Shown here in pieces: positions 41,489-55,693 of a stretch of DNA of 64,000 nt. Source of the stretch: Sphingomonas parva (ex Maeng et al. 2020) (lineage in GTDB: Bacteria > Pseudomonadota > Alphaproteobacteria > Sphingomonadales > Sphingomonadaceae); the NCBI RefSeq assembly GCF_004564275.1, contig NZ_SPDV01000010.1, positions 62,001 to 126,000 of the forward strand, written 5' to 3'. The stretch's first letter is position 1. Every line of letters begins with the position of its first letter. Made by a program: the position numbers and the translations under genes. A model generated the notes under the pieces. The model had not been told where the DNA came from. It did no database searches and saw only the letters and a program-made list of their open reading frames with translations.

Positions 41489-41562
41489 GCGGGTGTAGCT
41501 CAATGGTAGAGCAGAAGCTTCCCAAGCTTACGACGAGGGTTCGATTCCCTTCACCCGCTCCA
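41489..41562 (+). tRNA. tRNA-Gly (anticodon CCC)
   Basis: A 74-nt gene with encoded CCA. The acceptor stem GCGGGTG pairs with CACCCGC, the D arm is GCTC...GAGC, the anticodon loop TTCCCAA reads CCC, and the T arm AGGGTTCGATTCCCT is standard. The anticodon stem GAAGC/GCTTA has a G-A mismatch at its outer pair. It decodes GGG glycine codons. Confidence 0.93.
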
Positions 41563-42038: not shown

Positions 42039-44957
42039 ATGTCATTTGCTTCCAAGGCACGTCTGCTGACGTCCAGCCTGTTGATCGGTGCTGCGTCCTT
42101 CGCGGCCCCGGCCTTCGCCCAGACCGGCCCGGTGGAATCCGAGAACCCCGCCGGCCAGAGCGCCACCGACACCGCCGGCGAGGATCAGGGATCGATCGTC
42201 GTCACCGGCTCGCGCATCGTCCGTCCCGAGGTTTCGGCATCGGTCCCCGTCGCAGTGCTCTCCGACGAGGGCATCCAGGCGAGCGGTGCGGCCAACCTCC
42301 AGGACGCACTCTCCGAGCTGCCGTCGGTCGGCCAGAACATCAGCCGCACCTCCACCAACTTCTCGACGACCGCCAACGGCCAGGCGAGCGTGAACCTGCG
42401 CAACCTGGGATCGGCCCGCACGCTCGTTCTCGTCGACGGCCGTCGCTTCGTCGCCGGCCTGCCGGGCACCTCGATTGTCGACATCAACACCATCCCGACC
42501 GATCTGATCGAGCGGGTCGAGGTCGTCACCGGCGGCGCTTCCGCCGTCTACGGCTCGGAAGCGATCGCCGGCGTGGTCAACTTCGTGCTCAATGACGATT
42601 TCGAGGGCGTCCGCGTCCGCGGCCAGGGCACCATCTCCGACGAGGGCGATGCAGCGCGCCAGTACGTCTCGGTGACGGCGGGCACCGGCTTCGCCGGCGG
42701 CCGCGGCAACATCATCGCCTACGGCCAGTACGATCGCGACGAGGGCCTGCGGTCGCGCAACCGCGCCTTCTCCGCCACCGACGTGCCGAACCGCAGCTCG
42801 TTCTCCGCCCAGGGTCTGTTCAGCCCGGACGGCAGCTTCGCGCCGGGCGCCTCGACCTTCACCTTCGATCAGGCGAACAATCTGATCCCGTACCAGAGCG
42901 CCAACATCAACGGCTACAACCGCAACTACGATCGCTACCTTGCGGTGCCGGTCGAGCGCTATCTCGGCACCTTGCTTGGCAAGTTCGAGGTCACCGACGG
43001 GATCGAGCTGTTCGTCGAAGGCGAATATGCGAAGACCAAGTCGCGCTCGAGCCTCGAGCCGCAGGCCGTCGCCAATACCGATCTCACCAACCCGGACGGC
43101 TCGGTCTACGCCGGCATTCCGCTTACCAACCCGTTCATTCCGCTGGGCATCCGCAATGCGGTGAATGCGTTGAACACCGACGCCGATCCCGACAATGACG
43201 TCACGGCGATCCCGTTCCGTCGGCGTTCGAACGACATCTTCGATCGCAGCAACCGCAACGATCGTGAGCTGTGGCGCGGGGTCATCGGTCTGCGCGGGGA
43301 GCTCGGCAACGGCTACAAGTGGGACGTCTACTACAACCACGGCGAGTCGAAGGATCACACCGCGTCCGAGACGATCCTCGGTCCGAACTATGTGAACAGC
43401 CTCAACGCCGTCGCCGGCCCGAATGGTCCCGTCTGCTCGATCAACGTCGATGCTGACCCGACGAACAACGATCCCAATTGCGTGCCGATCAACATCTTCG
43501 GCTTCAACACCGCGACGCCCGCCGCATCCAACTACGTCACCGCGGGCGGCCTGCTCTCGACCTACGATGCCAAGGTCAAGCAGGACGTCGTTGCCGCGAC
43601 GATCTCGGGCTCGGTCCTCGACCTGCCCGGCGGCCCGCTCGGCTTCGCGACCGGTGTGGAATACCGCCGCGAGAAGAGCACCGAGGATTTCGACGAGGCG
43701 ACGAACCTCGGCCTGACCCTCGGCAACTTCCTGTCGGACACGCGCGGCAAGTACAACGTCAAGGAAGGCTTCGTCGAAATCGTCGCGCCGATCCTCGCCG
43801 ACAGGACCGGCTTCCATTACCTCGGCCTCGAGGGCGCGGTTCGCTACGCCGATTACTCGACCGTCGGCGGCGTCTGGAGCTGGAAGGCGGGCGGCGAATA
43901 TGCCCCGACCCGCGACATCCGCTTCCGCGCCATCTACTCCGAGGCGACCCGCGCACCGAGCATCTCCGAGCTGTTCTCGGCGCAGAGCGAGACGTTCCTG
44001 TCGGTCATCGACCCGTGCGACCAGCGCGCCGGCGAGGGTGACAACGCGCCGATCGCGATTCCGGCCGGCCAGCTTCCGGCCGCCTGTCTCGCCGTTCCCG
44101 CGATCGCGGCGGCGTCGCAGACGGCCGGCGGCTTCGTCTACTCGACGGCGCAGCTGCAGAACATCAACGGCTTCCTCGGCGGCAACCCGAACCTCCAGGA
44201 AGAGACTGCGAAGACGCTGACCGCCGGCGCGGTGTTCACGCCGACGTTCCTGCGCAACTTCACCCTCTCGGTAGATTACTACCGGATCAAGGTGCAGGAC
44301 GCGATCGGCATCATCGGCCAGCAGACCTCGCTCGACGAATGCATCACCGGCAGCGGCGAGGCGATCTTCTGCGGCAACATCGTTCGCGACGCGACCGGCC
44401 GGGTGGTCACCGTCAATGCGCTGAACCTCAACACCGGATCGTTCTTCGTCGAGGGCATCGACACCCAGGCCCGCTACAACCAGAACATCGGCCCGGCGCG
44501 TTTGGATCTGTCCGTCTACTGGAACCATCTGCTCGAGCAGGAGCAGACCTCGGTCCCGGGCGGCCCGACCCAGGGCGAAGTCGGCCAGCTCGACTGCTAC
44601 AATTGCGGCCGTCTAGGCACCGGCTTCAAGGACAAGGTCTTCGCTTCGGCGACCGTTGCGATGGAGAATTGGTCGCTTAACTGGCGCACCAACTGGTACA
44701 GCTCGGTGGTCGACGACCTCACCGATCCGGACCCGATCAAGACGGGTGACTTCTGGTACCACGACGCCCAGCTGCGCTTCACCGCCGGCGACGCGCAGAA
44801 GCTCGAGTTCTACCTCGGCGTGAACAACATCTTCGACAAGAAGCCGCCGCTGTTCGGCGACACGAACCTCGTGACGTTCCCGGGCACCCAGACGTCCGCG
44901 AACACCTACGATCTTTTTGGCCGGATGCTCTACGCCGGCGTCGACTTCCGGTTCTGA
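42039..44957 (+). CDS. TonB-dependent outer-membrane receptor
   Basis: A 972-residue receptor. Signal peptide (residues 1-27, cleavage after PAFA), a short linker, plug domain (about 48-170, IVVTGSRIVRPE then NLRNLGSARTLVLVDGRR and GGASAVYGSEAIAGVVNFVL) and a 22-strand barrel ending in Phe (YAGVDFRF). It lacks the N-terminal signalling domain of FecA-type receptors. It belongs to the large Caulobacter/sphingomonad group that imports oligosaccharides, peptides and other compounds; the ligand is unknown. It is monocistronic, closed by a strong terminator; the dipeptidase-family gene converges on it. Confidence 0.93.
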   Translation: MSFASKARLLTSSLLIGAASFAAPAFAQTGPVESENPAGQSATDTAGEDQGSIVVTGSRIVRPEVSASVPVAVLSDEGIQASGAANLQDALSELPSVGQNISRTSTNFSTTANGQASVNLRNLGSARTLVLVDGRRFVAGLPGTSIVDINTIPTDLIERVEVVTGGASAVYGSEAIAGVVNFVLNDDFEGVRVRGQGTISDEGDAARQYVSVTAGTGFAGGRGNIIAYGQYDRDEGLRSRNRAFSATDVPNRSSFSAQGLFSPDGSFAPGASTFTFDQANNLIPYQSANINGYNRNYDRYLAVPVERYLGTLLGKFEVTDGIELFVEGEYAKTKSRSSLEPQAVANTDLTNPDGSVYAGIPLTNPFIPLGIRNAVNALNTDADPDNDVTAIPFRRRSNDIFDRSNRNDRELWRGVIGLRGELGNGYKWDVYYNHGESKDHTASETILGPNYVNSLNAVAGPNGPVCSINVDADPTNNDPNCVPINIFGFNTATPAASNYVTAGGLLSTYDAKVKQDVVAATISGSVLDLPGGPLGFATGVEYRREKSTEDFDEATNLGLTLGNFLSDTRGKYNVKEGFVEIVAPILADRTGFHYLGLEGAVRYADYSTVGGVWSWKAGGEYAPTRDIRFRAIYSEATRAPSISELFSAQSETFLSVIDPCDQRAGEGDNAPIAIPAGQLPAACLAVPAIAAASQTAGGFVYSTAQLQNINGFLGGNPNLQEETAKTLTAGAVFTPTFLRNFTLSVDYYRIKVQDAIGIIGQQTSLDECITGSGEAIFCGNIVRDATGRVVTVNALNLNTGSFFVEGIDTQARYNQNIGPARLDLSVYWNHLLEQEQTSVPGGPTQGEVGQLDCYNCGRLGTGFKDKVFASATVAMENWSLNWRTNWYSSVVDDLTDPDPIKTGDFWYHDAQLRFTAGDAQKLEFYLGVNNIFDKKPPLFGDTNLVTFPGTQTSANTYDLFGRMLYAGVDFRF

Positions 44958-45032: not shown

Positions 45033-46157
45033 TCAGCCGAGGACGTCGGTCAGCACACGGGCAAAATTCCCTCCCATGATGCGGTCGACGTCGCGCGGCC
45101 GGAACCCGTCCGCTTCGAGCGCCCGGCGGATTTTCACCATCCGATCGAGCGTGTTGAGTTCCGGAACGACGACATGCTCAGGCGTCCATTCGAAGCCGGG
45201 GATGCCGAGCGCGCGCATCGCCAGCCACCATTCGAGATACTCCTTCACGCCTTCGCGATTGTCGTTGCCGAGCTTCAACAGGTTCGGCTGACCGGCCATC
45301 GGAAAGTCGTTGGAGATGCCCACGGCCTCGATGCCGCCCACCTGGATGACATGGCGGATATGGGCGATCAGATGCTCGACCCGCGGTTGCGGGTCACGCG
45401 TGAGCCAGAAGCTCATCATGAAGATGCCGATCACGCCGCCTCGATCGGCGATGGCGCGGATCGCCTCGTCCGGAATGCACCGCGGATGATCGAGGATCGC
45501 CCGGCATGCGCCGTGGGAGTAGACGATCGGCGAGCGGCTGAGCCGCGCCGCCTCCAGCATCGTCGCGACCGAGCCATGCGAGACGTCCGGCAGGATCCGG
45601 AGGCGGTTCATCTCGTCCAGGCCCTCGACACCCAGCCGGGTTAGTCCGCGCTGGACCCGCTCGAGGGCGCCGCCGGCGAAGGCGGTGTCGTTGTGATGGG
45701 TGAACTGGAGGACGCGCAGCCCTTTGCCATAGAAATAGGAAATGCGGGCGAGATCGTCGGCAACGGGTTCGCACGACTGGAACTGGAGGAATGCGGCGCA
45801 GCCGGTGCGACGGCCGATGTCGCTGCCGCGCTCGGCCACGAAGGCCAGGTCGCTGCCGCTCAGTCTCGCGGCTGCCGCGTCGATCGCCTTGACGTTCGTC
45901 TCGAAGGTCCGGCGATAGCGCGGCGTGCCGTCCGGATCGCGCACCTCCCCGACCTCCGAAACATCGCAGATCATCGCCACGAGCCCTGCTCGGCGAATCT
46001 CCTCGAGATCGTCGGGAAGGAAGCTCAGGCCGTCTACAAAACCGGGCTTGGGCAAGTCGGGCGACGCGGCTGGAACGGTCGCACAAGCGGCAAGCGGGGC
46101 CACGGCGAGCGCTCCGAGCACGGATCTGCGGGAGCAGGCGGGTAGAGCGTCGGTCAT
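45033..46157 (-). CDS. M19 dipeptidase-family lipoprotein with missing metal ligands
   Basis: A 374-residue membrane-dipeptidase (renal dipeptidase, M19) homologue. The signal SRRSVLGALAVAPLAAC has Arg-Arg (possible Tat) and a lipobox with lipidated C25. The barrel keeps DVSHGS (H194) and IVYSHGACRAI (H215), two zinc ligands. The N-terminal HxD ligands of active enzymes (DGHND) are replaced by VDGLSFLP (residues 41-48), and the bridging Glu aligns with Gln127 (QFQSCEP). The binuclear site therefore looks incomplete. Activity may be lost or changed. Start ATG 46157; the frame continues upstream without coding character. Confidence 0.8.
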   Translation of the reverse strand: MTDALPACSRRSVLGALAVAPLAACATVPAASPDLPKPGFVDGLSFLPDDLEEIRRAGLVAMICDVSEVGEVRDPDGTPRYRRTFETNVKAIDAAAARLSGSDLAFVAERGSDIGRRTGCAAFLQFQSCEPVADDLARISYFYGKGLRVLQFTHHNDTAFAGGALERVQRGLTRLGVEGLDEMNRLRILPDVSHGSVATMLEAARLSRSPIVYSHGACRAILDHPRCIPDEAIRAIADRGGVIGIFMMSFWLTRDPQPRVEHLIAHIRHVIQVGGIEAVGISNDFPMAGQPNLLKLGNDNREGVKEYLEWWLAMRALGIPGFEWTPEHVVVPELNTLDRMVKIRRALEADGFRPRDVDRIMGGNFARVLTDVLG

Positions 46158-46370
46158 GGATCCTCGCAGTCGGTGAAGGGCGGGTTTGCGGCGTCGCAGG
46201 CGCGCGATCAACCCGTCCCCGGGGCAGTTTCGGGGCAACGCGCTCGGCGGTGCTCGGGCAGTTGAGTCGCCCGAGCACGTAAGGCGGCTTGGCACGGCGC
46301 GAGGCGCGGCCGGCCTCGAGTCATGGTAGGATGCCGCCACGGACGGCAGTGCCGGCAAATGAGGCGCCCA

Positions 46371-47654
46371 ATGGATCAGACGTCTCGAAACAGGAGCCTT
46401 GCGGGCGGCGTCCCGAGCAGCGCTTCGCCGGCCACGGCGTTGCTGGTGCGAGTCCTGCGGCGCTTCATCCGCAATGGAGAGCTCACGATCGTCGACCACA
46501 AGGGGCGCAGCCATGTCATCGGCGCGAAGGTACCTGGATGGCCCGAGGCCAGGTTGCGGTTCCTCGACAGGCGCGTACCGGCGGCGATGCTGCGCGACCC
46601 GGTGCTCGGCCTCGGCGAAGCCTATATGGCCGGGCGTGCCGTCATCGAGCACGGCGACGTCCTGGACGTCGCAACGATCATTCGCGGCAACTCGCCATGG
46701 GAAGAAGGCGGCGGCTTCCCGCGCAGCCGCCGGATCCGGGCCAGGCTGGACCGGATCAACTGGCCGGCGCGCGCACGGCGGAACGTCGCGCATCACTACG
46801 ATCTCGCCGACGGGCTCTTCCCGCTCTTTCTAGGGGACGAGCTGGAATATAGCTGCGCCTATTTCCGGAATCCCGACGCGACCCTCGACCAGGCGCAGGC
46901 CGACAAGAGGGCGCATATCGCCGCGAAGCTGCTGCTGCGGCCGGGGCAGCGCGTGCTGGACATCGGCTGCGGCTGGGGCGGGCTCGCCCTCTACCTCCAC
47001 CGCGTCGCAGGCGTGGACGTTCTCGGCGTCACTCTGTCCGAGCGCCAGGTGGAGATCGCACGCCGCCGTGCCGCGGCGGCGGGGGTCGCGGATCGGGTCC
47101 GCTTCGAGCTGCGCGACTATCGCGAGATCCAGGGGCGGTTCGACAGGATCGTTTCGATCGGCATGTTCGAGCATGTCGGCCCGCTTCATTACCGCACCTT
47201 CTTCGATGCGTGCCGGCGCCTGCTCGCCCCGGACGGCGTGATGCTGCTCCACACGATCGGCCGGCTCGGCACCCCGGTCCTCACCGATGCATGGCTGCGC
47301 AAGTACATCTTCCCTGGCGGTCATACGCCCGCCCTGTCGCAGATCGTCCGCGCGAGCGAGACGGCGCGGCTGATCGCGGCCGACGTCGAGACCTTGCGCC
47401 TCCATTACGCCCACACGCTCCATCATTGGTATCTCAATGCCTGGGCGCATCGGGAGGAGATCGAGGGCCTTTACGACGCGCGCTTCTTCCGCATGTGGCT
47501 CTACTATCTCGCCGGCGCGCTCATCTCGTTTCGCTTCGGCGGCCTCTGCAACTACCAGATCCAGTTCGTGCGCGAGCGCAGCGCCTTGCCGCTCGTCCGG
47601 GACTACCGCCACGAGGCGGAAGCACGGCTGCGCGGCGAAAGTACGCCCGGATGA
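46371..47654 (+). CDS. cfa: Cyclopropane-fatty-acyl-phospholipid synthase family methyltransferase
   Basis: A 427-residue SAM-dependent enzyme of the CFA synthase family. It methylenates double bonds of membrane phospholipid acyl chains. Marks: RNVAHHYDLADGLFPLFLGDELEYSCAYF, the SAM loop VLDIGCGWGGLALYL, FDRIVSIGMFEHVGPLHY, and HYAHTLHHWYLNAW with the C-terminal WLYYLAGALISFRFG. The start is set at ATG 46371 (MDQTSRN); the frame also opens at 46323. It is the gene before the NRPS operon, with a 118-bp gap, and probably not part of it. Confidence 0.9.
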   Translation: MDQTSRNRSLAGGVPSSASPATALLVRVLRRFIRNGELTIVDHKGRSHVIGAKVPGWPEARLRFLDRRVPAAMLRDPVLGLGEAYMAGRAVIEHGDVLDVATIIRGNSPWEEGGGFPRSRRIRARLDRINWPARARRNVAHHYDLADGLFPLFLGDELEYSCAYFRNPDATLDQAQADKRAHIAAKLLLRPGQRVLDIGCGWGGLALYLHRVAGVDVLGVTLSERQVEIARRRAAAAGVADRVRFELRDYREIQGRFDRIVSIGMFEHVGPLHYRTFFDACRRLLAPDGVMLLHTIGRLGTPVLTDAWLRKYIFPGGHTPALSQIVRASETARLIAADVETLRLHYAHTLHHWYLNAWAHREEIEGLYDARFFRMWLYYLAGALISFRFGGLCNYQIQFVRERSALPLVRDYRHEAEARLRGESTPG

Positions 47655-47772: not shown

Positions 47773-49650
47773 ATGGAAAACGTCGACCCGCAATTCTCGC
47801 CCGCGTTCGACAGCGCGCCGGCCCTGGACGCCGCCTCCCTTACGGAGTCGCAACTCTCCCCACCCTTTTCGGTCGCCGCAAAGGTCGCCGAGATCGCGCG
47901 CGTGCAGCCGGACGCGACGGCGCTCGTCGCCACCTGCGGCACGCTCAGCTACCGCGAGCTCGACAGCCGCGCCGAGCGGCTTGCGTCCTGGCTGCGGGGC
48001 CGCGGCATCGGCAGCGGCGGGCTCGTCGGCCTGTGCCTGGAGCGATCGTTCGATCAGATCGTCGCGGCGCTGGCCGCGTGGAAGACAGGCGCCGCCTATC
48101 TGCCGCTCGATCCCGCCTGGCCGGACGCTCGCCTGAGCACGATCGTTGCCGATGCGCGCTGCGCCATCGTGCTCGGCCGCGACGAGACGGCCCGCCGGCT
48201 GGCCGGCAGCGCGGCGCCGGTCGAGACCCTTGATTGGGCCGCCGTGCCCGCGGACGCGGTGCGCGGGCCCGGACTCGGCGAGGACCCGCGGGCGCTCGCT
48301 TATGTGATCTACACCTCCGGGACGACCGGCACGCCGAAAGGTGTCGAGATCACCCACGCCAATCTCTCCCACCTGATCGCCTGGCATGTCGATGCCTTCG
48401 GGATCACGTGCCGCGATCGGGCGAGCCATCTTGCCGGCCTCGGCTTCGACGCGGCCGCTTGGGAGATTTGGCCGTACCTCTGCGCCGGCGCGTCGGTGAC
48501 CTTGATCGAGGACGCGGCGCGCGTCGCCTCGGAACGGCTGCGCGCGGCGCTGATCGAGCGCGGCATCACCATCGCGTTCGCCCCCACGGCAATCGCCGAG
48601 GAGCTGATCGCCGCAGATTGGCCGGCCGACGCGCCGCTGCGGATTCTCCTGACCGGCGCAGACCGCCTGGTCGCCCGTCCACGGCCGGGCCTCCCCTTCG
48701 CCTTCGTCAACAATTACGGGCCGACGGAGTGCACGGTCGTCGCCACGTCCGCGATCGTAGCGCCGGGCGGCGACGCGGAGCTGCCGCCGATCGGGCGTCC
48801 GATCGGCGCGGCCCGCATTCACATCCTCGACGGGAACGGCCATCTCGTCCCGACCGGAGAGGTCGGGGAGATCCACATCGGCGGCCCGATGGTCGGGCGC
48901 GGCTATCGCGGCCGACCCGATCTGACCGCGCAGCGCTTCGTCGCCGATCCGTTCGGCGGCGCCGGCGACAGGCTCTACAGGACGGGGGATCTCGGCATTC
49001 TGCTCGCCGACGGTCAGATCGCGTTCCGCGGCCGGATCGACGATCAGGTGAAGATCCGCGGTCATCGCGTCGAGCCCGACGAGGTGGCGAGCGTCCTGGG
49101 CCGTCATCCCGCGGTCGGCGCCTGCACCGTGGTCGCGCGGCGCGCAGCCGACGGCGGCGATGCGCTGGTGGGCTACGTCGTGCCGCAGCGAACGCTGACC
49201 GCCGAGGAGCTGCGGAGCTTTCTCGCCGAGCAGCTTCCCGACTATATGGTTCCGGCAAGCTTCGTCCGGCTGGACGCGCTTCCGCTCACCGCCAACGGCA
49301 AGCTCGACAAGGCGGCGCTCCCGGACCCTGCGGAAGAAAACGCGCTCGAGACGGCAGGCTTCAGCGCCGCGACGACGCTCGCCGAGCAGAGGCTCGCCGA
49401 GATCCTGGCCGAGGTGCTGGGCCGCGGGCCGGTCGGCATCGACGACAATTTCTTCCTCCTCGGCGGCCATTCGCTGCTCGGGACCCAGGTGGTGCTCCGC
49501 GCCGGCGAGGCGTTCGGGATCGAGCTTACCCTGCGCGACCTCTTCCTCGCCCCCACCATCCGTCAGCTCGCCGCGCATGTGGAAGCGCTGCTGATGCGGA
49601 TGATCGAGGCGATGAGCGACGACGAGGCGCAGCAGCGCGCAGCCGAATAA
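47773..49650 (+). CDS. NRPS didomain A-PCP, leucine-type pocket
   Basis: A 625-residue protein with an adenylation domain (about 35-530) and a carrier domain (about 540-615). A3 is YTSGTTGTPKG (180-190), A5 NNYGPTEC, A10 PLTANGKLD. Aligned by eye to GrsA, the ten pocket residues read DAWFLGNVVK, a recognised Leu code. The carrier Ser is S567 in LLGGHSLLG. There is no condensation domain, so it should activate Leu and present it in trans, like the NovH-type A-PCP proteins that feed a P450. Start ATG 47773; the frame opens earlier without coding character. It is followed after 10 bp by the P450 gene. Confidence 0.9.
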   Translation: MENVDPQFSPAFDSAPALDAASLTESQLSPPFSVAAKVAEIARVQPDATALVATCGTLSYRELDSRAERLASWLRGRGIGSGGLVGLCLERSFDQIVAALAAWKTGAAYLPLDPAWPDARLSTIVADARCAIVLGRDETARRLAGSAAPVETLDWAAVPADAVRGPGLGEDPRALAYVIYTSGTTGTPKGVEITHANLSHLIAWHVDAFGITCRDRASHLAGLGFDAAAWEIWPYLCAGASVTLIEDAARVASERLRAALIERGITIAFAPTAIAEELIAADWPADAPLRILLTGADRLVARPRPGLPFAFVNNYGPTECTVVATSAIVAPGGDAELPPIGRPIGAARIHILDGNGHLVPTGEVGEIHIGGPMVGRGYRGRPDLTAQRFVADPFGGAGDRLYRTGDLGILLADGQIAFRGRIDDQVKIRGHRVEPDEVASVLGRHPAVGACTVVARRAADGGDALVGYVVPQRTLTAEELRSFLAEQLPDYMVPASFVRLDALPLTANGKLDKAALPDPAEENALETAGFSAATTLAEQRLAEILAEVLGRGPVGIDDNFFLLGGHSLLGTQVVLRAGEAFGIELTLRDLFLAPTIRQLAAHVEALLMRMIEAMSDDEAQQRAAE

Positions 49651-49660
49651 GGGGGCCAAG

Positions 49661-50917
49661 ATGACCATCCAGCCGGCACCGACGCACACGCGCGCGATCG
49701 ATCCGAGCCTCAGCCTTTTCCAGCTGCTCGATCCCGCCGTCCATGCCGATCCCTACCCCTTCTATCGCAGGCTGCGGGAGGAGGCGCCGGTTCATTGGGA
49801 TCCGTTCATGCACACCTGGGTCGTCACTCGTTACGCCGACGTGATGACCGTGCTGCATCAATTCTCGGCCGATCGCACGCCCGATCCGGACCAGATGAAG
49901 GCGCTGGGTCTGCCCTCGCTCGGACCGGTCGCCGACGTCATGGCCCGGCAGATGCTGTTTCTCGATGCGCCCGCGCACACGCGCCTGCGCAAGCTTTGCT
50001 CCAGCGCCTTCACGCCGCGGCGGGTCGAAGCGATGGAAGAGCAGATCCAGGGCATTGCCGAGCGCCTGATCGACGCCCGCATCGCCTCCGGACGAATGGA
50101 CGTCATCGCCGATTTCGCCGAGCCCTTCCCCGCCATCGTGACGGCGGGGCTGCTCGGCGTTCCGCTCGACGACCATGGCTGGCTGAAGGCCAAGTCGGCG
50201 GATTTCGCGGAGATGCTCGGCAACTTCCAGCACAATCCCGATCGCGTGCACGGCGTGCTGAAGAGCGTCGCCGAGCTCACCGACTATTTCCGCGACGCGA
50301 TCCGGAATCACGGTGACCGCCCCGGGCTGGTCCGCTCGCTGGTTGAAGCGGAGGTCGACGGATCGCGGCTCACCGAGGATGAGGTGATCGCCAACACCAT
50401 CGTGACGATGGTCGGCGGCCAGGAAACCACGACCAACCTGATCGGCAACGGGCTCCTCACGCTCATTCGCAAGCCGGAGACGATGCAGGAGCTGCGCGAG
50501 CAGCCCGACATCATCGCCAGCGCCGTCGAGGAGCTGCTGCGCTACGAGACCCCGAGCCAGCACACCGCGCGCATCGCGCCCATGGATACAGAGATCGGCG
50601 GCACCCCGATCCGCAAGGGTGACGCGGTGATGGCGGTGATGGCAGCGGCCAATCGCGATCCGCTGCGCTTTCCCGATCCGGATCGCCTCGACCTGCGGCG
50701 CACTGACAATCGCCACCTCGCCTTCGGGTGGGCCGCGCATTTCTGCTTCGGTGCCGCTTTGGCGCGAATGGAGGCGCGGATCGCCTTCACCACTCTGCTT
50801 CGCCGGCTCGACGACATCACGCTTGCCGCCGACCGGCTGGAGTGGAGACCGAATTCCGGCCTTCGCGGGCTCAAGGCGCTGCCGATCACCTTCCGCACCC
50901 CGGGAGCGCCTGCATGA
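49661..50917 (+). CDS. Cytochrome P450 of the NRPS operon
   Basis: A 418-residue soluble bacterial P450. The heme ligand is C362 in FGWAAHFCFGAALAR (second Gly of the usual FGxGxHxC is Ala), the ExxR pair lies in EELLR, and the oxygen-activating I-helix reads VGGQETT (252-257) instead of AGxxT. GGGGG 5 bp upstream serves as ribosome-binding site, and the stop overlaps the next NRPS gene (ATGA). Since it lies between an A-PCP protein and a C-A-PCP-TE module, the likely task is hydroxylating the carrier-bound amino acid (probably beta-hydroxylation of Leu), as NovI does for Tyr; this is inference. Confidence 0.87.
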   Translation: MTIQPAPTHTRAIDPSLSLFQLLDPAVHADPYPFYRRLREEAPVHWDPFMHTWVVTRYADVMTVLHQFSADRTPDPDQMKALGLPSLGPVADVMARQMLFLDAPAHTRLRKLCSSAFTPRRVEAMEEQIQGIAERLIDARIASGRMDVIADFAEPFPAIVTAGLLGVPLDDHGWLKAKSADFAEMLGNFQHNPDRVHGVLKSVAELTDYFRDAIRNHGDRPGLVRSLVEAEVDGSRLTEDEVIANTIVTMVGGQETTTNLIGNGLLTLIRKPETMQELREQPDIIASAVEELLRYETPSQHTARIAPMDTEIGGTPIRKGDAVMAVMAAANRDPLRFPDPDRLDLRRTDNRHLAFGWAAHFCFGAALARMEARIAFTTLLRRLDDITLAADRLEWRPNSGLRGLKALPITFRTPGAPA

Positions 50918-53900
50918 CGGCGGCCCTTTCCGACGCCAAGCGACAGCTCCTCGAAAAGATGCTGCGCGGCGGCGGCGAGGCAGCCGCGCCTGTCGCCGGC
51001 GTGCGGCCGCGTCCGCCCGGCACGATCGTGCCGCTGACCGCCGACCAGCGGCAGGTGTGGCTGCACGCGATGATGGCGCCGGACGTGCCCCTCTACAACG
51101 AATCGATCACCATCCACCGGCTGGGCGCGTTCGATCTCGCGGCGCTGGAGAGGAGCCTCGAAGAGATCGTGAGGCGACACGAGGCCTGGCGGACCTGCTT
51201 CGCCGAGGTCGACGGAGAGCTGGTCCAGCGGATCCGGTCCGACGTAAGTATCCGGCTGCTGCTCGACGACGTGAGCCATCTGCCGGCCGAGGAGCGGGAC
51301 GCGGCAGCGATCGCGATCGGAAGCGACGACGCCCGCCGGCCGATCGACCTCGCCGAGGCGCCGCTGTTCCGCGCCCGCGTGGTCAGGCTGGCCGAGGACA
51401 ATCACCGACTCTACCTGACGCTGCACCACATCATCTTCGATGGGGTCTCGATCTACCGGGTGATCGTTCCGGAGCTCGCCGCCCTCTACCAGGCGTTCTC
51501 GACGGGCGCGCCCTCGCCCCTTCCCGAGCCGGTGCTGCAATATGGCGATTATGCTGTCTGGCAGCAGGCGCATCTCGCGTCTCCGGCGATCGCCCGTCAG
51601 CTCGACCATTGGCGCGCGACCCTCGCCGACGCGCCCTCGAAGCTCGAGCTGACCGGCGACCGCGCGAAGCCGACGCATCCGACCCACGCCGGATCGATGG
51701 AGACCTTCCCGATCTCCCATGGCCTCACCGAGGCCTTGAAGGCGGTCAGCCGCCGCGAAGGCGTGACACTCTACATGACGCTGCTCGCCGCCTACAAGGC
51801 GATGCTCCACCTCTACACCGGGGAGGAGGACATCGTCGTCGGAGGCGTGACCGACCTCAGACGGCGCCCGGAGCTGGAGCGGGTCGTCGGCTATTTCCTG
51901 AACACGATCGCGATGCGCTCGCGGCCGACCGCGTCGCTGCCGGTTCGCGAGTATCTACACCAGGTTCGGGACAGCGTCCTCGGCGCACTTGCCGCCAGCG
52001 AAGTGCCGTTCGACGAAGTGGTGCGCGATCTCGGCATCCGCCGGCAGCCCGGCGCCCATCCCCTGTTCAACACGCTCTTCTCGATCGAGCCACCGGTCGA
52101 TCCATTTCCCGAGGGCTGGGACCTCACCCAGATGGACGTGGTCGTCGGCGGCGCCAAGTTCGATCTCTACCTCGAGCTCGACGAGCGGCCTGACGGGATG
52201 ATTGGCCGCTTTCTCTACAGCACCGAACTGTTCGATCCGGCGACGATCCGGCGGATGATCGGTCATTGGCTCAATATGCTGGAAGGGATTGCCGAGGATG
52301 CCGGGCGCCCGATCGGCGATCTCCCGTTGCTCACACGCGAAGAGACGGCGCTGATTGTCGCGATCAACGACACCTCGACGCCAGTGGGGCCGCCGCTGCC
52401 GGACGCGATCGCGGCGTCGGTGCGGGCACGGCCGGAGGCGATCGCGGTCCGCTGCGGCGAGGATCGCTGCACCTATGCCGAGCTGGACCTCCGCGCCGGC
52501 CGGATCGCGGCGGCGCTGCAGGCCCGGGGCGTTGGAAGAGGCGCTCTGGTGGCGCTCTGCCTCGATCGCTCGCCGGACATGGTCGCCGCCCTGCTCGCCG
52601 TCATGAAATGCGGCGCCGCCTATCTTCCGCTCGACCTGGATTTTCCGGCGCAAAGGCTCGATTACATCGTCCGCGACGCCGGCATCGCGGCGCTGCTTAC
52701 CGAGCGCCGCCTCCTCGGAACGCTGCCCGCATGGGAAGGGCCGGTGTTGTTGGTCGAGGAGGCTGCCGAGCTGACCCCTGCTGACGCCGTGACAGTGGCT
52801 CCGGAGGATCTCGCCTACGTCCTCTACACGTCGGGTTCGACCGGCCGACCGAAAGGGGTCGAGATCGGCCACGGCGCGCTGGCGAACCTGCTGGAGTCGA
52901 TGCGCGTCCGGCCGGGCTTCGCGGCGGAAGACAGCCTGCTCGCCGTCACCACGCTGTCCTTCGACATCGCCGCTCTCGAGATCTTCCTGCCGCTGATCTG
53001 CGGCGGAACCCTGGTCCTCGCCCCCCGCGCGGTCGCTACCGATCCAGTGCGTCTGGCCGCGCTGCTGCGCGAGACGCGTCCGACGATGATGCAGGCGACA
53101 CCCGCGACCTGGCGGGCGCTGATCGAAACCGGGTGGCGCGGCGATCCGAACCTCACCCTGCTTTGCGGTGGCGAGGCGCTGCCGCGCGAGCTTGCGCTCG
53201 AGCTGCTCGCGCGCGCCGGCACGGTCTGGAACATGTACGGCCCGACCGAGACGACGATCTGGTCGACGATGCATCGTGTCACGCCCGAGGACGGACCCGT
53301 ACCCATCGGGCGGCCGATCGCGAACACCCTCACCCATGTGCTCGACAAGCGTGGCGGGCCCGTGCCCGCCGGCGTGACCGGCGAGCTTTACATCGGCGGC
53401 GCCGGGCTGGCCCGCGGCTATCGCAACCGCCCCGATCTCACGGCCGAACGCTTCGCGGAGCAACCCGGCGTTCCTGGCGTGCGGCTCTATCGCACCGGCG
53501 ATCTCGCCCGCTACGCGGCGGACGGTACGCTCTTCTGCCTCGGCCGCACCGACAACGATCAGAAGATCCGCGGCTTCCGCGTCGCAGTGGAGGAAATCGA
53601 GGGTGCACTCGCCGAGCACCCGGAAATCGCCGCGGCGGCGGTGCGAAGCTGGCCGGACGCCTCCGGCGAGCGCGCGCTCGCCGCCTATCTGGTGCCGCGC
53701 GGTCAAATGCCCTCGCCCGGCGAGTTGCGAGCGCATCTCGGCCGGACGCTTCCCGAGTACATGATCCCCTCGCGCTTCCAGGCTCTGGCGGCCTTGCCGA
53801 TGACTCCGAACGGCAAGATCGATCGCAACGCCCTGCCTTCCCCTGACAAGGCGGACAGCGCGGGTCGATCGGCGCCGCCGGTCGGCGAGACGGAAACCCG

Positions 53901-54954
53901 GCTCGCCGCGATCTGGGCCGATCTGCTCGGCGTCGGCGGCGTCGGCAGGGAGGACAGCTTCTTCGAGCTCGGCGGTCATTCGCTGCTCGTCGCGCGCCTG
54001 CTCCACCGCATTGAGATGCAATGGGATCGCCGGATCGGGATGGCCGAATTCTTCCGAGCCCATCGGCTTGCCGAACTTGCCGGCAGGATCGACAGGCTCG
54101 ACTCGGCCGATTGCGGCGGGCTCGTGCCCCTGCAGCCGCTCGGCGCCGGTACGCCCATGATATGGCTGGACGGCGGTCCCGCAATGATGGCGCTGGCCCG
54201 GGAGGTTGGCATCGACATCCCCTTTCTCGGCCTGCCGCTGGACCCGATCCTCGAGCGGCTGTTCGAGACGCAGCCGCCGTTCGAAGCGGTGGCCCGCGAG
54301 GTGGTCGGCACATTGCGCCAGGCGCAGCCCGCCGGACCCTATCTGATCGGCGGCTGGTGCACGGCCGGAATCCTCGCCTACGAGGTTGCCCGGCAGCTCC
54401 GCGAAGCCGGCGAGGAGGTGCCGTTGCTGGCACTCGGCCATGCCTTCAATCCGGTGGCGTTCCAGCGCATCGGTCCGCTGCGGATGGCAGCCAGCAAGGC
54501 GCGATTCCACGCGGGCGTGTGGCTTCGCCTGCCGCTCCGGGAACGGCTCGACTATGCGAAGGCGCGCGCGTTCGGCATGCTCGAGGAAGCGGGCGTCGCC
54601 GAGCCGGATCGTCCGGAGACCCGTTATCGGCAGCTGCGCGGAGCGCTCGAACGTGCCGCTTACGGCTACCGGCCCGGCGCCTATGGCGGCGACGTGGCGC
54701 TCTTCCAGCCGATCGACCGCCCCGCGGTGCACGACACGCGGCCTGGCTGGGCGGACCTGGTGACCGGCGCGCTCACCGCCTACGACATCCCCGGGGAACA
54801 CGGCACCATGTGGGACCAGCCGAACCTCGCCAGTTTCGGAGCGCGGCTGCGGGAGGCGATCATCGAGGCCCGCAACGGCGGCCGGGCGGGCTCTTCTCCG
54901 TTCGGACGGGAGCGGGCGCGGCCCGAACGCATCCTCTGCCGGGCGGGATCGTGA
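50914..54954 (+). CDS. NRPS module C-A-PCP-TE, glycine-type pocket, Cys thioesterase
   Basis: A 1346-residue protein. Order: short N-terminal helix (SDAKRQLLEKMLRG), condensation domain (about 40-470, active site HHIIFDG, H172), adenylation domain (about 490-970, A3 YTSGSTGRPKG), carrier domain (S1023 in LGGHSLLV) and thioesterase (about 1080-1320). The pocket residues read DILQLGMIWK by eye, close to known Gly codes. The TE nucleophile elbow is GGWCTAG, so C1149 replaces Ser; the likely His is H1296 (GEHGTMW). It should condense a donor, most simply the Leu-type unit of the first gene, with Gly and release the product. The 4-bp overlap with the P450 gene shows co-translation. Confidence 0.9.
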   Translation: MTAALSDAKRQLLEKMLRGGGEAAAPVAGVRPRPPGTIVPLTADQRQVWLHAMMAPDVPLYNESITIHRLGAFDLAALERSLEEIVRRHEAWRTCFAEVDGELVQRIRSDVSIRLLLDDVSHLPAEERDAAAIAIGSDDARRPIDLAEAPLFRARVVRLAEDNHRLYLTLHHIIFDGVSIYRVIVPELAALYQAFSTGAPSPLPEPVLQYGDYAVWQQAHLASPAIARQLDHWRATLADAPSKLELTGDRAKPTHPTHAGSMETFPISHGLTEALKAVSRREGVTLYMTLLAAYKAMLHLYTGEEDIVVGGVTDLRRRPELERVVGYFLNTIAMRSRPTASLPVREYLHQVRDSVLGALAASEVPFDEVVRDLGIRRQPGAHPLFNTLFSIEPPVDPFPEGWDLTQMDVVVGGAKFDLYLELDERPDGMIGRFLYSTELFDPATIRRMIGHWLNMLEGIAEDAGRPIGDLPLLTREETALIVAINDTSTPVGPPLPDAIAASVRARPEAIAVRCGEDRCTYAELDLRAGRIAAALQARGVGRGALVALCLDRSPDMVAALLAVMKCGAAYLPLDLDFPAQRLDYIVRDAGIAALLTERRLLGTLPAWEGPVLLVEEAAELTPADAVTVAPEDLAYVLYTSGSTGRPKGVEIGHGALANLLESMRVRPGFAAEDSLLAVTTLSFDIAALEIFLPLICGGTLVLAPRAVATDPVRLAALLRETRPTMMQATPATWRALIETGWRGDPNLTLLCGGEALPRELALELLARAGTVWNMYGPTETTIWSTMHRVTPEDGPVPIGRPIANTLTHVLDKRGGPVPAGVTGELYIGGAGLARGYRNRPDLTAERFAEQPGVPGVRLYRTGDLARYAADGTLFCLGRTDNDQKIRGFRVAVEEIEGALAEHPEIAAAAVRSWPDASGERALAAYLVPRGQMPSPGELRAHLGRTLPEYMIPSRFQALAALPMTPNGKIDRNALPSPDKADSAGRSAPPVGETETRLAAIWADLLGVGGVGREDSFFELGGHSLLVARLLHRIEMQWDRRIGMAEFFRAHRLAELAGRIDRLDSADCGGLVPLQPLGAGTPMIWLDGGPAMMALAREVGIDIPFLGLPLDPILERLFETQPPFEAVAREVVGTLRQAQPAGPYLIGGWCTAGILAYEVARQLREAGEEVPLLALGHAFNPVAFQRIGPLRMAASKARFHAGVWLRLPLRERLDYAKARAFGMLEEAGVAEPDRPETRYRQLRGALERAAYGYRPGAYGGDVALFQPIDRPAVHDTRPGWADLVTGALTAYDIPGEHGTMWDQPNLASFGARLREAIIEARNGGRAGSSPFGRERARPERILCRAGS

Positions 54955-55003
54955 TCATGGAAAGCTCGGGGCGGCAGCGCCGGCCGGGGGCCGGGACGCT
55001 GCC

Positions 55004-55693
55004 GTGAGCCTCGACCTCGTGCTGTTCGAGCTCGATCTTCCCGCTCGCGAGATCGAGAGCCTCGCCGCCTCGCTCGACGAGGGCGAGCAGGTCCGGGCAG
55101 CCGCCTATCGCTCGCCGCGCGACCGGCGACGCTTCATCGCGCGTCGCGGCCAGCTGCGCCGGCTGCTGGCGGAACGGCTCGGCGGCATGCCGCACCGGCT
55201 GCAGTTCCGGTCCAATCCGTGGGGAAAGCCGTTCCTCGCCGAGCAGCCGTCGCTGCATTTCAGCCTTTCCTCTTCAGGCGAGCTCGCGCTTTTCGCATCC
55301 GCCTGGGGACGCGAGGTCGGCTGCGATATCGAGCGCAAGGATCCGGCGCTCGCCCTTCCCGGCGTGGCGCAGCGCTTCTTTTCCCCGGCGGAACAGGAAG
55401 CCTTGGCGTCCCTGGCGGATGAGCAATGGGTGGACGGCTTCTTCAACTGCTGGACGCGCAAGGAAGCCTATGTGAAGGCGCTCGGCCTCGGTCTTTCCTG
55501 TCCGCTCGACGGGTTCACCGTCTCGGTCGCTCCGGGCGAGAGCGGTCGTCTGATCGACGCCGAGCCTGGCTGGAGCTTGTGCTCCTTCGCGCCGGCACCG
55601 CGCTATCAGGCGGCGGTCGTCCTGCGCGGCGAAGCCGCCGATGTCGGGGCGCTGGCCTGCCGCGGGCTCCAGCCGACGGCGCGCGCGGCCTAG
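55004..55693 (+). CDS. Sfp-type 4'-phosphopantetheinyl transferase
   Basis: A 229-residue enzyme that attaches phosphopantetheine from CoA to carrier-domain serines. Family motifs: NPWGKPFL, LHFSLSSSGELALFA, VGCDIERKD (Mg-binding Asp/Glu) and FFNCWTRKEAYVKALG. The GTG start lies 49 bp after the second NRPS gene, same strand, so it is the last gene of the operon. It most likely activates S567 and S1023 of the two NRPS proteins; no other carrier-protein system is in the window. Confidence 0.92.
   Translation: MSLDLVLFELDLPAREIESLAASLDEGEQVRAAAYRSPRDRRRFIARRGQLRRLLAERLGGMPHRLQFRSNPWGKPFLAEQPSLHFSLSSSGELALFASAWGREVGCDIERKDPALALPGVAQRFFSPAEQEALASLADEQWVDGFFNCWTRKEAYVKALGLGLSCPLDGFTVSVAPGESGRLIDAEPGWSLCSFAPAPRYQAAVVLRGEAADVGALACRGLQPTARAA

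What the first reader, a model, noticed from the sequence alone, without database searches (positions are those of the whole stretch)
47773..55693. Compact four-gene NRPS operon predicted to make a modified Leu-Gly dipeptide
Seen: A-PCP, P450, C-A-PCP-TE and an Sfp-type transferase on one strand with gaps of 10 bp, -4 bp and 49 bp. The two pocket codes read by eye are DAWFLGNVVK (Leu) and DILQLGMIWK (Gly-like). Known: stand-alone A-PCP proteins with an adjacent P450 (NovH/NovI type) give beta-hydroxyamino acids. Inference: the operon makes (beta-hydroxy)Leu-Gly, released as acid, diketopiperazine, or a seven-membered lactone if the hydroxyl attacks the Gly thioester. No transporter, tailoring or MbtH gene is adjacent, so the product would be among the smallest NRPS products, perhaps a signal, protease inhibitor or metal ligand. 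I recognise no described cluster with this make-up.
Basis: partly seen in the sequence, partly recalled or inferred. Interest (0 to 1): 0.88.

Follow-up and report, generated by a model that had tools for sequence, protein, structure and literature searches.

The report
Conserved four-gene dipeptide-making NRPS operon
A compact set of four bacterial genes probably joins an oxidised leucine to a glycine and releases the product, and the same set, with the same predicted building blocks, recurs in scattered sphingomonads and a few distant bacteria, which suggests a small, undescribed natural product.

Summary
In detail: A-PCP (47773-49650), P450 (49661-50917), C-A-PCP-TE (50914-54954) and an Sfp-type PPTase (55004-55693), with the stated gaps and pocket codes. 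It holds the only condensation domain found in the genome. It is one of a family: I compared 33 loci (window included) from sphingomonads, Caulobacter, another alphaproteobacterium, Acidobacteria and a Solirubrobacterales MAG. P450 lies beside A-PCP in 32 of 32 testable loci. The Leu code is identical in 28 of 32; the second code is DILQLG-type in 32 of 33, and its window form, DILQLGMIWK, is a published Gly code. Distribution is patchy: 21 of 295 Sphingomonas genomes, 8 of 397 searched in the family, 0 of 10 others of the window's genus. Best reading: Leu is loaded, oxidised (probably beta-hydroxylated) on the carrier, joined to Gly and released by a Cys-TE, perhaps as a ring. Oxidation site, ring and role are untested. 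The kind is known (NovH/NovI-like pair plus termination module); I did not find this variant in print.

The parts
47773..49650 (+). A-PCP protein, 625 aa, predicted to load Leu (code DAWFLGNVVK)
   Evidence: Pfam; code
49661..50917 (+). Cytochrome P450, 418 aa; closest solved structures by sequence are BioI (CYP107H1) and PksS; predicted to oxidise carrier-bound Leu
50914..54954 (+). C-A-PCP-TE termination module, 1346 aa; code DILQLGMIWK (Gly); TE motif GGWCTAG with Cys nucleophile and His at the usual Asp position
55004..55693 (+). Sfp/HetI-like 4'-phosphopantetheinyl transferase, 229 aa
   Evidence: the only one of the genome's three ACPS-superfamily matches in an open frame over 150 aa

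Best explanation
The operon is a self-contained two-residue NRPS pathway. The PPTase arms both carrier domains. The A-PCP protein loads L-Leu on its own carrier. The P450 oxidises that carrier-bound Leu, most likely hydroxylating the beta carbon. The C domain of the second protein takes the modified leucyl group from the A-PCP protein in trans and joins it to Gly loaded on its own carrier. The Cys-TE takes the dipeptidyl chain as a thioester and releases it. I think intramolecular release more likely than plain hydrolysis, by attack of the amine (diketopiperazine) or of the beta-hydroxyl (seven-membered 1,4-oxazepane-2,5-dione); both rings would weigh about 186.10 Da and the open acid 204.11 Da. 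Shown by sequence: domains, order, codes, conservation. Inferred: in-trans transfer, site of oxidation, release mode, export and function.
For: Domain content. One condensation domain found in the genome. Codes conserved: code 1 exact in 28 of 32 loci, code 2 DILQLG[MVL][IV]WK in 32 of 33. Codes match published ones (PMC12283262 passages), and a laxaphycin Leu site with pocket DAWFLGNVVK becomes 3-OH-Leu (PMC7524897 passages; there by proposed cupin-family hydroxylases, and a second such site has a gap in its code). The P450 is next to A-PCP in 32 of 32 testable loci, even where the PPTase has moved (L035) or the rest of the assembly line differs (L037, L038). Pairwise distances agree between genes: A1-P450 r 0.88, A1-N2 0.96, P450-N2 0.91 (32 loci), PPTase-N2 0.90 (30 loci), each 0 of 1000 permutations. 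The closest P450 structures include BioI solved with acyl carrier protein. TE Cys in 31 of 31. The tested cysteine TEs ObiF and SulM close rings on small substrates (PMC6668435, PMC11298585 passages).
Against: No product, substrate assay or expression data were available. Agreement of gene distances is also expected from co-inheritance alone. The P450's closest solved relatives are CYP107/109-type enzymes; no row named NovI, OxyD or P450sky appears among the 60 or 50 rows shown, which does not exclude them. Gly has no beta carbon, so the ObiF-type beta-lactone route is not available. Five of 31 TEs keep Asp at the usual place; one locus (L126) has no TE; the TE of L037 lacks the usual His motif. 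Two members have another first code (DASTLGNIAK) and Caulobacter has another second code (DAAAFGMVYK).
Confidence: 0.6

Rival explanations
1. Same dipeptide line, but the P450 does something other than beta-hydroxylation on carrier-bound Leu: desaturation to dehydro-Leu, gamma/delta-hydroxylation, or multi-step oxidation as BioI does.
For: Best sequence matches are BioI and PksS and the tied best structural matches include CalO2 and BioI-ACP complexes, which to my recollection are not amino-acid beta-hydroxylases. The heme motif has Ala where Gly is usual (FGWAAHFCFG; usual motif recalled).
Against: The discrete A-PCP/P450 pairs named in the passages seen of PMC3578932 give beta-hydroxyamino acids.
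Confidence: 0.3
2. The operon makes a modified dipeptidyl group that is attached to another molecule (a glycan or lipid carrier) and exported by the linked flippase, rather than released free.
For: A PF13440-type flippase gene lies downstream in 15 of 33 loci and its distances track the NRPS (r 0.96, 15 loci; 4 of the 15 checked against Pfam). Two other loci (L036, L040) sit among glycosyltransferase/Wzy/sugar-transferase genes, and L113 has a GT2 gene next door.
Against: Relatives of this flippase occur in 202 of 295 Sphingomonas genomes, most without the cassette. The window and 17 other loci show none in the stretch held, and the window genome's two best PF13440 genes are only 24-31% identical to it. 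No transferase gene recurs beside the cassette.
Confidence: 0.12
3. Plain hydrolytic release of an open (hydroxy)Leu-Gly dipeptide; the Cys and His changes in the TE have no role in ring closure.
For: AB3403, a C-A-PCP-TE with a Cys motif (Gly activation recalled), is called uncharacterised in PMC11298585 (passage), so Cys alone does not show cyclisation. Five members keep Asp at the usual place.
Against: In ObiF the Cys-to-Ser change gives mainly hydrolysis, and in SulM it leads to rapid hydrolysis of the ring formed (passages), so a conserved Cys argues for keeping water out.
Confidence: 0.3
4. The window copy is a decaying remnant without function.
For: No match in 10 of 10 other genomes of its genus searched; no flippase nearby; no sigma-70-like promoter found (0 found, mean 0.5 in shuffles).
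Against: All four frames are open, catalytic motifs and codes are intact, and GC3 (0.84-0.87) resembles the neighbours (0.81-0.89).
Confidence: 0.05

Closest known systems
Discrete A-PCP + P450 pairs (Qui18/Qui15; NovH/NovI; the nikkomycin pair)
   Same: Two-domain A-PCP protein with a P450; carrier-bound amino acid as P450 substrate (tested for Qui15; PMC3578932, passages)
   Different: Those load Trp, Tyr or His and belong to larger actinobacterial clusters (the latter partly recalled); here the code is Leu, the hosts found are mostly alphaproteobacteria, and the partner is usually a single C-A-PCP-TE module. No MbtH gene was found in 13 of the 14 other cassette genomes searched, whereas Qui18 needs one
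AB3403 (ABBFA_003403, PDB 4zxh/4zxi), C-A-PCP-TE of Acinetobacter baumannii
   Same: Same domain order; best profile match of the TE among solved chains; Cys in a GGWC motif
   Different: AB3403 keeps Asp at the usual position (PMC11298585 passage; alignment); the window TE has His there
Obafluorin ObiF and sulfazecin SulM thioesterases
   Same: Cys nucleophile; the usual Asp position changed; small substrates (PMC6668435, PMC11298585 passages)
   Different: There a beta nucleophile on the last residue closes a four-membered ring; Gly cannot do so. An Asp at position II was not established here
P450 BioI (CYP107H1)
   Same: Closest solved P450 by sequence (258 bits), solved with its acyl carrier protein
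   Different: BioI cleaves fatty acyl chains (recalled); here the neighbouring carrier belongs to a protein predicted to activate Leu

Membership tests
NovH/NovI-type A-PCP + P450 pair | Stand-alone A-PCP protein beside a P450 | tested here: met
   adjacent in 32 of 32 testable loci
NovH/NovI-type A-PCP + P450 pair | P450 acts on carrier-bound, not free, amino acid | not testable with these tools
   Needs reconstitution; nearest structures include a carrier-protein complex
NovH/NovI-type A-PCP + P450 pair | Hydroxylation at the beta carbon | not testable with these tools
   Inferred by precedent only
NovH/NovI-type A-PCP + P450 pair | P450 belongs to the same P450 family as NovI/NikQ/P450sky | tested here: inconclusive
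   Best listed matches are BioI, PksS, CalO2 and CYP109 enzymes; lists are cut at 60 or 50 rows
Obafluorin/sulfazecin-type ring-closing TE | Cys nucleophile | tested here: met
   GGWCTAG; Cys in 31 of 31 TEs
Obafluorin/sulfazecin-type ring-closing TE | Catalytic Asp moved to position II | tested here: inconclusive
   Position I is His in the window and in 26 of 31; two acids lie in the loop after the next strand, 28 and 22 residues before the His (30 in ObiF1 and SulM by their published numbers); no coordinates to measure
Obafluorin/sulfazecin-type ring-closing TE | Last residue carries a beta nucleophile | tested here: not met
   Second code is a Gly code; substrate not assayed
Gly-activating termination module (AB3403-like) | C-A-PCP-TE with Gly pocket | tested here: met
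   DILQLGMIWK documented for Gly; substrate itself not assayed
Sfp-type PPTase | Over 200 aa, ACPS superfamily domain in the C-terminal half (criterion recalled) | tested here: met
   229 aa, PF01648 at 105-189

The most novel reading that the evidence does not exclude
A widely scattered but undescribed minimal NRPS family makes a beta-hydroxy-leucyl-glycine ring (oxazepanedione or diketopiperazine). It would use a P450-modified starter and a thioesterase in which the catalytic triad has become Cys/His/His or Cys/His/relocated acid, i.e. a third kind of ring-closing Cys-TE beside ObiF and SulM, making one of the smallest cyclic NRPS products.
Probability: 0.3. Interest if true: 0.7.

Novelty: new variant of a known kind. 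Interest (0 to 1): 0.5.

Why it matters
Products of two-residue NRPS lines are easy to miss in screens. This set is small (about 8 kb, four genes with its own PPTase), so it could be expressed whole in a laboratory host. The conserved codes give exact mass predictions. It would also test whether discrete A-PCP/P450 pairs work outside actinobacteria on an aliphatic residue, and what a Cys-TE with a changed triad does when no beta-lactone is possible.

Tried and rejected
A second NRPS in the genome supplying the donor: rejected, one condensation domain match only; 12 AMP-binding matches include the two of the operon. MbtH partner: an unlinked MbtH gene lies on contig 21, a contig with no Condensation or AMP-binding match; of 14 other cassette genomes searched, some of them incomplete, 13 gave no MbtH match, so it is probably not part of this. 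Plasmid home: 456 plasmid records matched P0003 at E 1e-100, every best place below 60% identity. Foreign base composition: not seen. Flippase as evidence of a dedicated exporter: weakened by its 202 of 295 background, though the closest subgroup (68% or more to the query, 13 genomes) includes 11 cassette genomes and 2 without a cassette match; in one of the 11 (G894) it lies on another contig. Weaker P450 relatives in the class (six genomes at 41-44%): only one was looked at (L127), and no other cassette gene was found in its 14 kb. NovI/OxyD/P450sky-named structures: none in the rows shown for the P450. ObiF and SulM were not among the 50 VIA rows for the TE. Code look-up by exact word: DILQLGLIWK gave 0 papers, DAWFLGNVVK 2, DILQLG inside words 2 (PMC5466765 not opened). 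PMC9716278, a Sphingomonas cluster survey, has no 'cytochrome' in its main text; three passages seen. Rfam on the whole window at gathering scores: one tRNA, no riboswitch. C-domain subtype (LCL/DCL) was not tested for lack of references.

Second copies in G810 and G984 (42-43%) and partial hits were not analysed. L006 has no A-PCP on its contig, so counts for A-PCP use 32; a probable A-PCP of that genome is on L114. L038 and L126 have no alignable TE, so TE counts use 31. The TE alignment for structure prediction and the PDB profile used 13 of the TEs then in hand; L037 was left out on purpose, and the later loci were not yet fetched. Of the 79 loci, 8 carry the set (L032-L038, L040).
Full report
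What is there. Four + strand genes at 47773-55693 encode A-PCP (625 aa), P450 (418 aa), C-A-PCP-TE (1346 aa) and a 229-aa PPTase, with gaps of 10, -4 and 49 bp. The C domain has HHIIFDG and both carriers LGGHSL. In print, DAWFLGNVVK is among the most commonly encountered codes of the Leu/Ile/Val group, and DILQLGMIWK is shared by four Gly-activating domains (PMC12283262, passages seen). DAWFLGNVVK is also a pocket at a laxaphycin position that ends up as 3-hydroxy-Leu, where Leu itself is thought to be loaded first; a second such position has a gap in its code (PMC7524897, passages seen).

Self-contained. The genome (4.49 Mb, 111 contigs, completeness given as 100) has one condensation domain match, the one in this operon. 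Of three ACPS-superfamily matches, the other two lie in open frames of 144 and 149 aa, the size of AcpS (recalled), so the operon brings what is probably the only Sfp-type PPTase. An MbtH gene exists on contig 21 but is unlinked.

It is a family. In 397 genomes of the taxonomic family, 8 (own included) hold the full-length module at 53% identity or more; none of 10 other genus members has a match at E 1e-60. In 295 genomes of the genus of G335, 21 hold it at 52-69%, and two more hold two copies each at 42-47%; I take this genus to be Sphingomonas because the contig length of G335 equals that of the Sphingomonas sp. NFR15 record. By P450 at E 1e-120, 9 of 396 genomes of the order (own included). 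In 385 of the class at E 1e-90, 8 match: own, G541 at 67%, and six at 41-44%, of which one was looked at and showed no cassette. Named records with the set, 8 of 79 loci fetched, include Sphingomonas populi 3-7, Sphingomonas sp. NFR15, S. desiccabilis, Caulobacter sp. 17J65-9, Acidicapsa dinghuensis, an Acidobacteria MAG and a Solirubrobacterales MAG.

What the 33 compared loci share. P450 lies beside A-PCP in 32 of 32 testable. Code 1 is DAWFLGNVVK in 28 of 32 (plus DGWFLGNVVK and DAWFLGDVVK once each, DASTLGNIAK twice). Code 2 is DILQLGMIWK in 20, DILQLGVIWK in 9, DILQLGLIWK in 1, DILQLGMVWK in 2 and DAAAFGMVYK in 1 (Caulobacter). The PPTase is detected in the stretch held in 30 of 33; in Caulobacter it lies between P450 and the module. 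Distances between loci agree across genes (r 0.88-0.96, 0 of 1000 permutations each); co-inheritance alone could give this. Trees of the module and the P450 place the window near Sphingomonas clade I (module: with 12 others, 100/99; P450: with 12 others, 94/70, weaker), although the other genus members searched lack the set. That suits transfer between lineages, but base composition shows nothing foreign (cassette GC 0.697, window 0.683).

Variants. L037 has an extra stand-alone C protein between P450 and the module, whose own C motif is changed (HLLVFDA). In L038 the module runs on into another C domain at the end of the contig. L036 carries a second, short A domain. L126 has no TE: its open frame ends soon after the PCP. 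L040, L157 and L038 show no PPTase in the stretch held. So the A-PCP/P450 pair behaves as a portable starter unit (inference).

Neighbours. The only neighbour gene found in more than 5 of the 33 loci is a flippase (Wzx/MOP type; PF13440 in the 4 checked), convergent downstream in 15 of 33 and directly after the cassette in 12 of these. Its distances track the module (r 0.96). Against a special link: relatives occur in 202 of 295 genomes of the genus. For it: of the 13 genomes with the closest subgroup (68% or more), 11 carry the cassette. The window genome's two best PF13440 matches are 24-31% identical to it; four weaker matches were not compared. Some flanks were cut short by contig ends, so 15 is a lower count.

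Verdict. The substrates are well supported by sequence; the assembly order is likely; the oxidation site, release mode and role are not known. I place it as a new variant of a known kind: an A-PCP/P450 starter pair coupled to a single Gly-type termination module with an unusual Cys-TE. The searches on which 'not in print' rests were made, in an open-access library only and seen mostly as listings, plus word look-ups of the codes.

Noticed in passing
window 42039-44957 and 45033-46796: A TonB-dependent receptor (+) and a gene holding a membrane dipeptidase domain (Peptidase_M19, -) lie just upstream, followed by a CMAS-type (cyclopropane fatty acid synthase-like) methyltransferase at 46323-47654; a dipeptidase near a dipeptide pathway may be coincidence, since no such neighbour cluster recurs with the window.
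   Followed up: partly
G000 contig 21, 80254-80391 (L128 6179-6448): An MbtH-like gene on a contig without any Condensation or AMP-binding match, in a genome whose only condensation domain is on another contig.
   Followed up: partly
G893, G1035, G872, G1067, G936, G990: Open frames of 828-939 aa matching only the A, PCP and TE part of the module at 45-47% identity: apparently single-residue A-PCP-TE proteins without a C domain. Reach of the match only; not annotated.
   Followed up: no
Many drafts of the genus of G335: The flippase relatives often start within about 1 kb of a contig end, as if next to a repeated stretch that breaks assemblies.
   Followed up: no
L037 9854-11302: A stand-alone C domain (482 aa) beside a module whose own C motif is changed (HLLVFDA), suggesting that the separate C domain took over condensation.
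   Followed up: no
L166 7564-8805 and L167 9195-10394 (oriented): Directly after the PPTase gene, an FAD-monooxygenase-like and a major-facilitator-like protein judged from the first residues only.
   Followed up: no
window 41489-41559: A tRNA gene.
   Followed up: no
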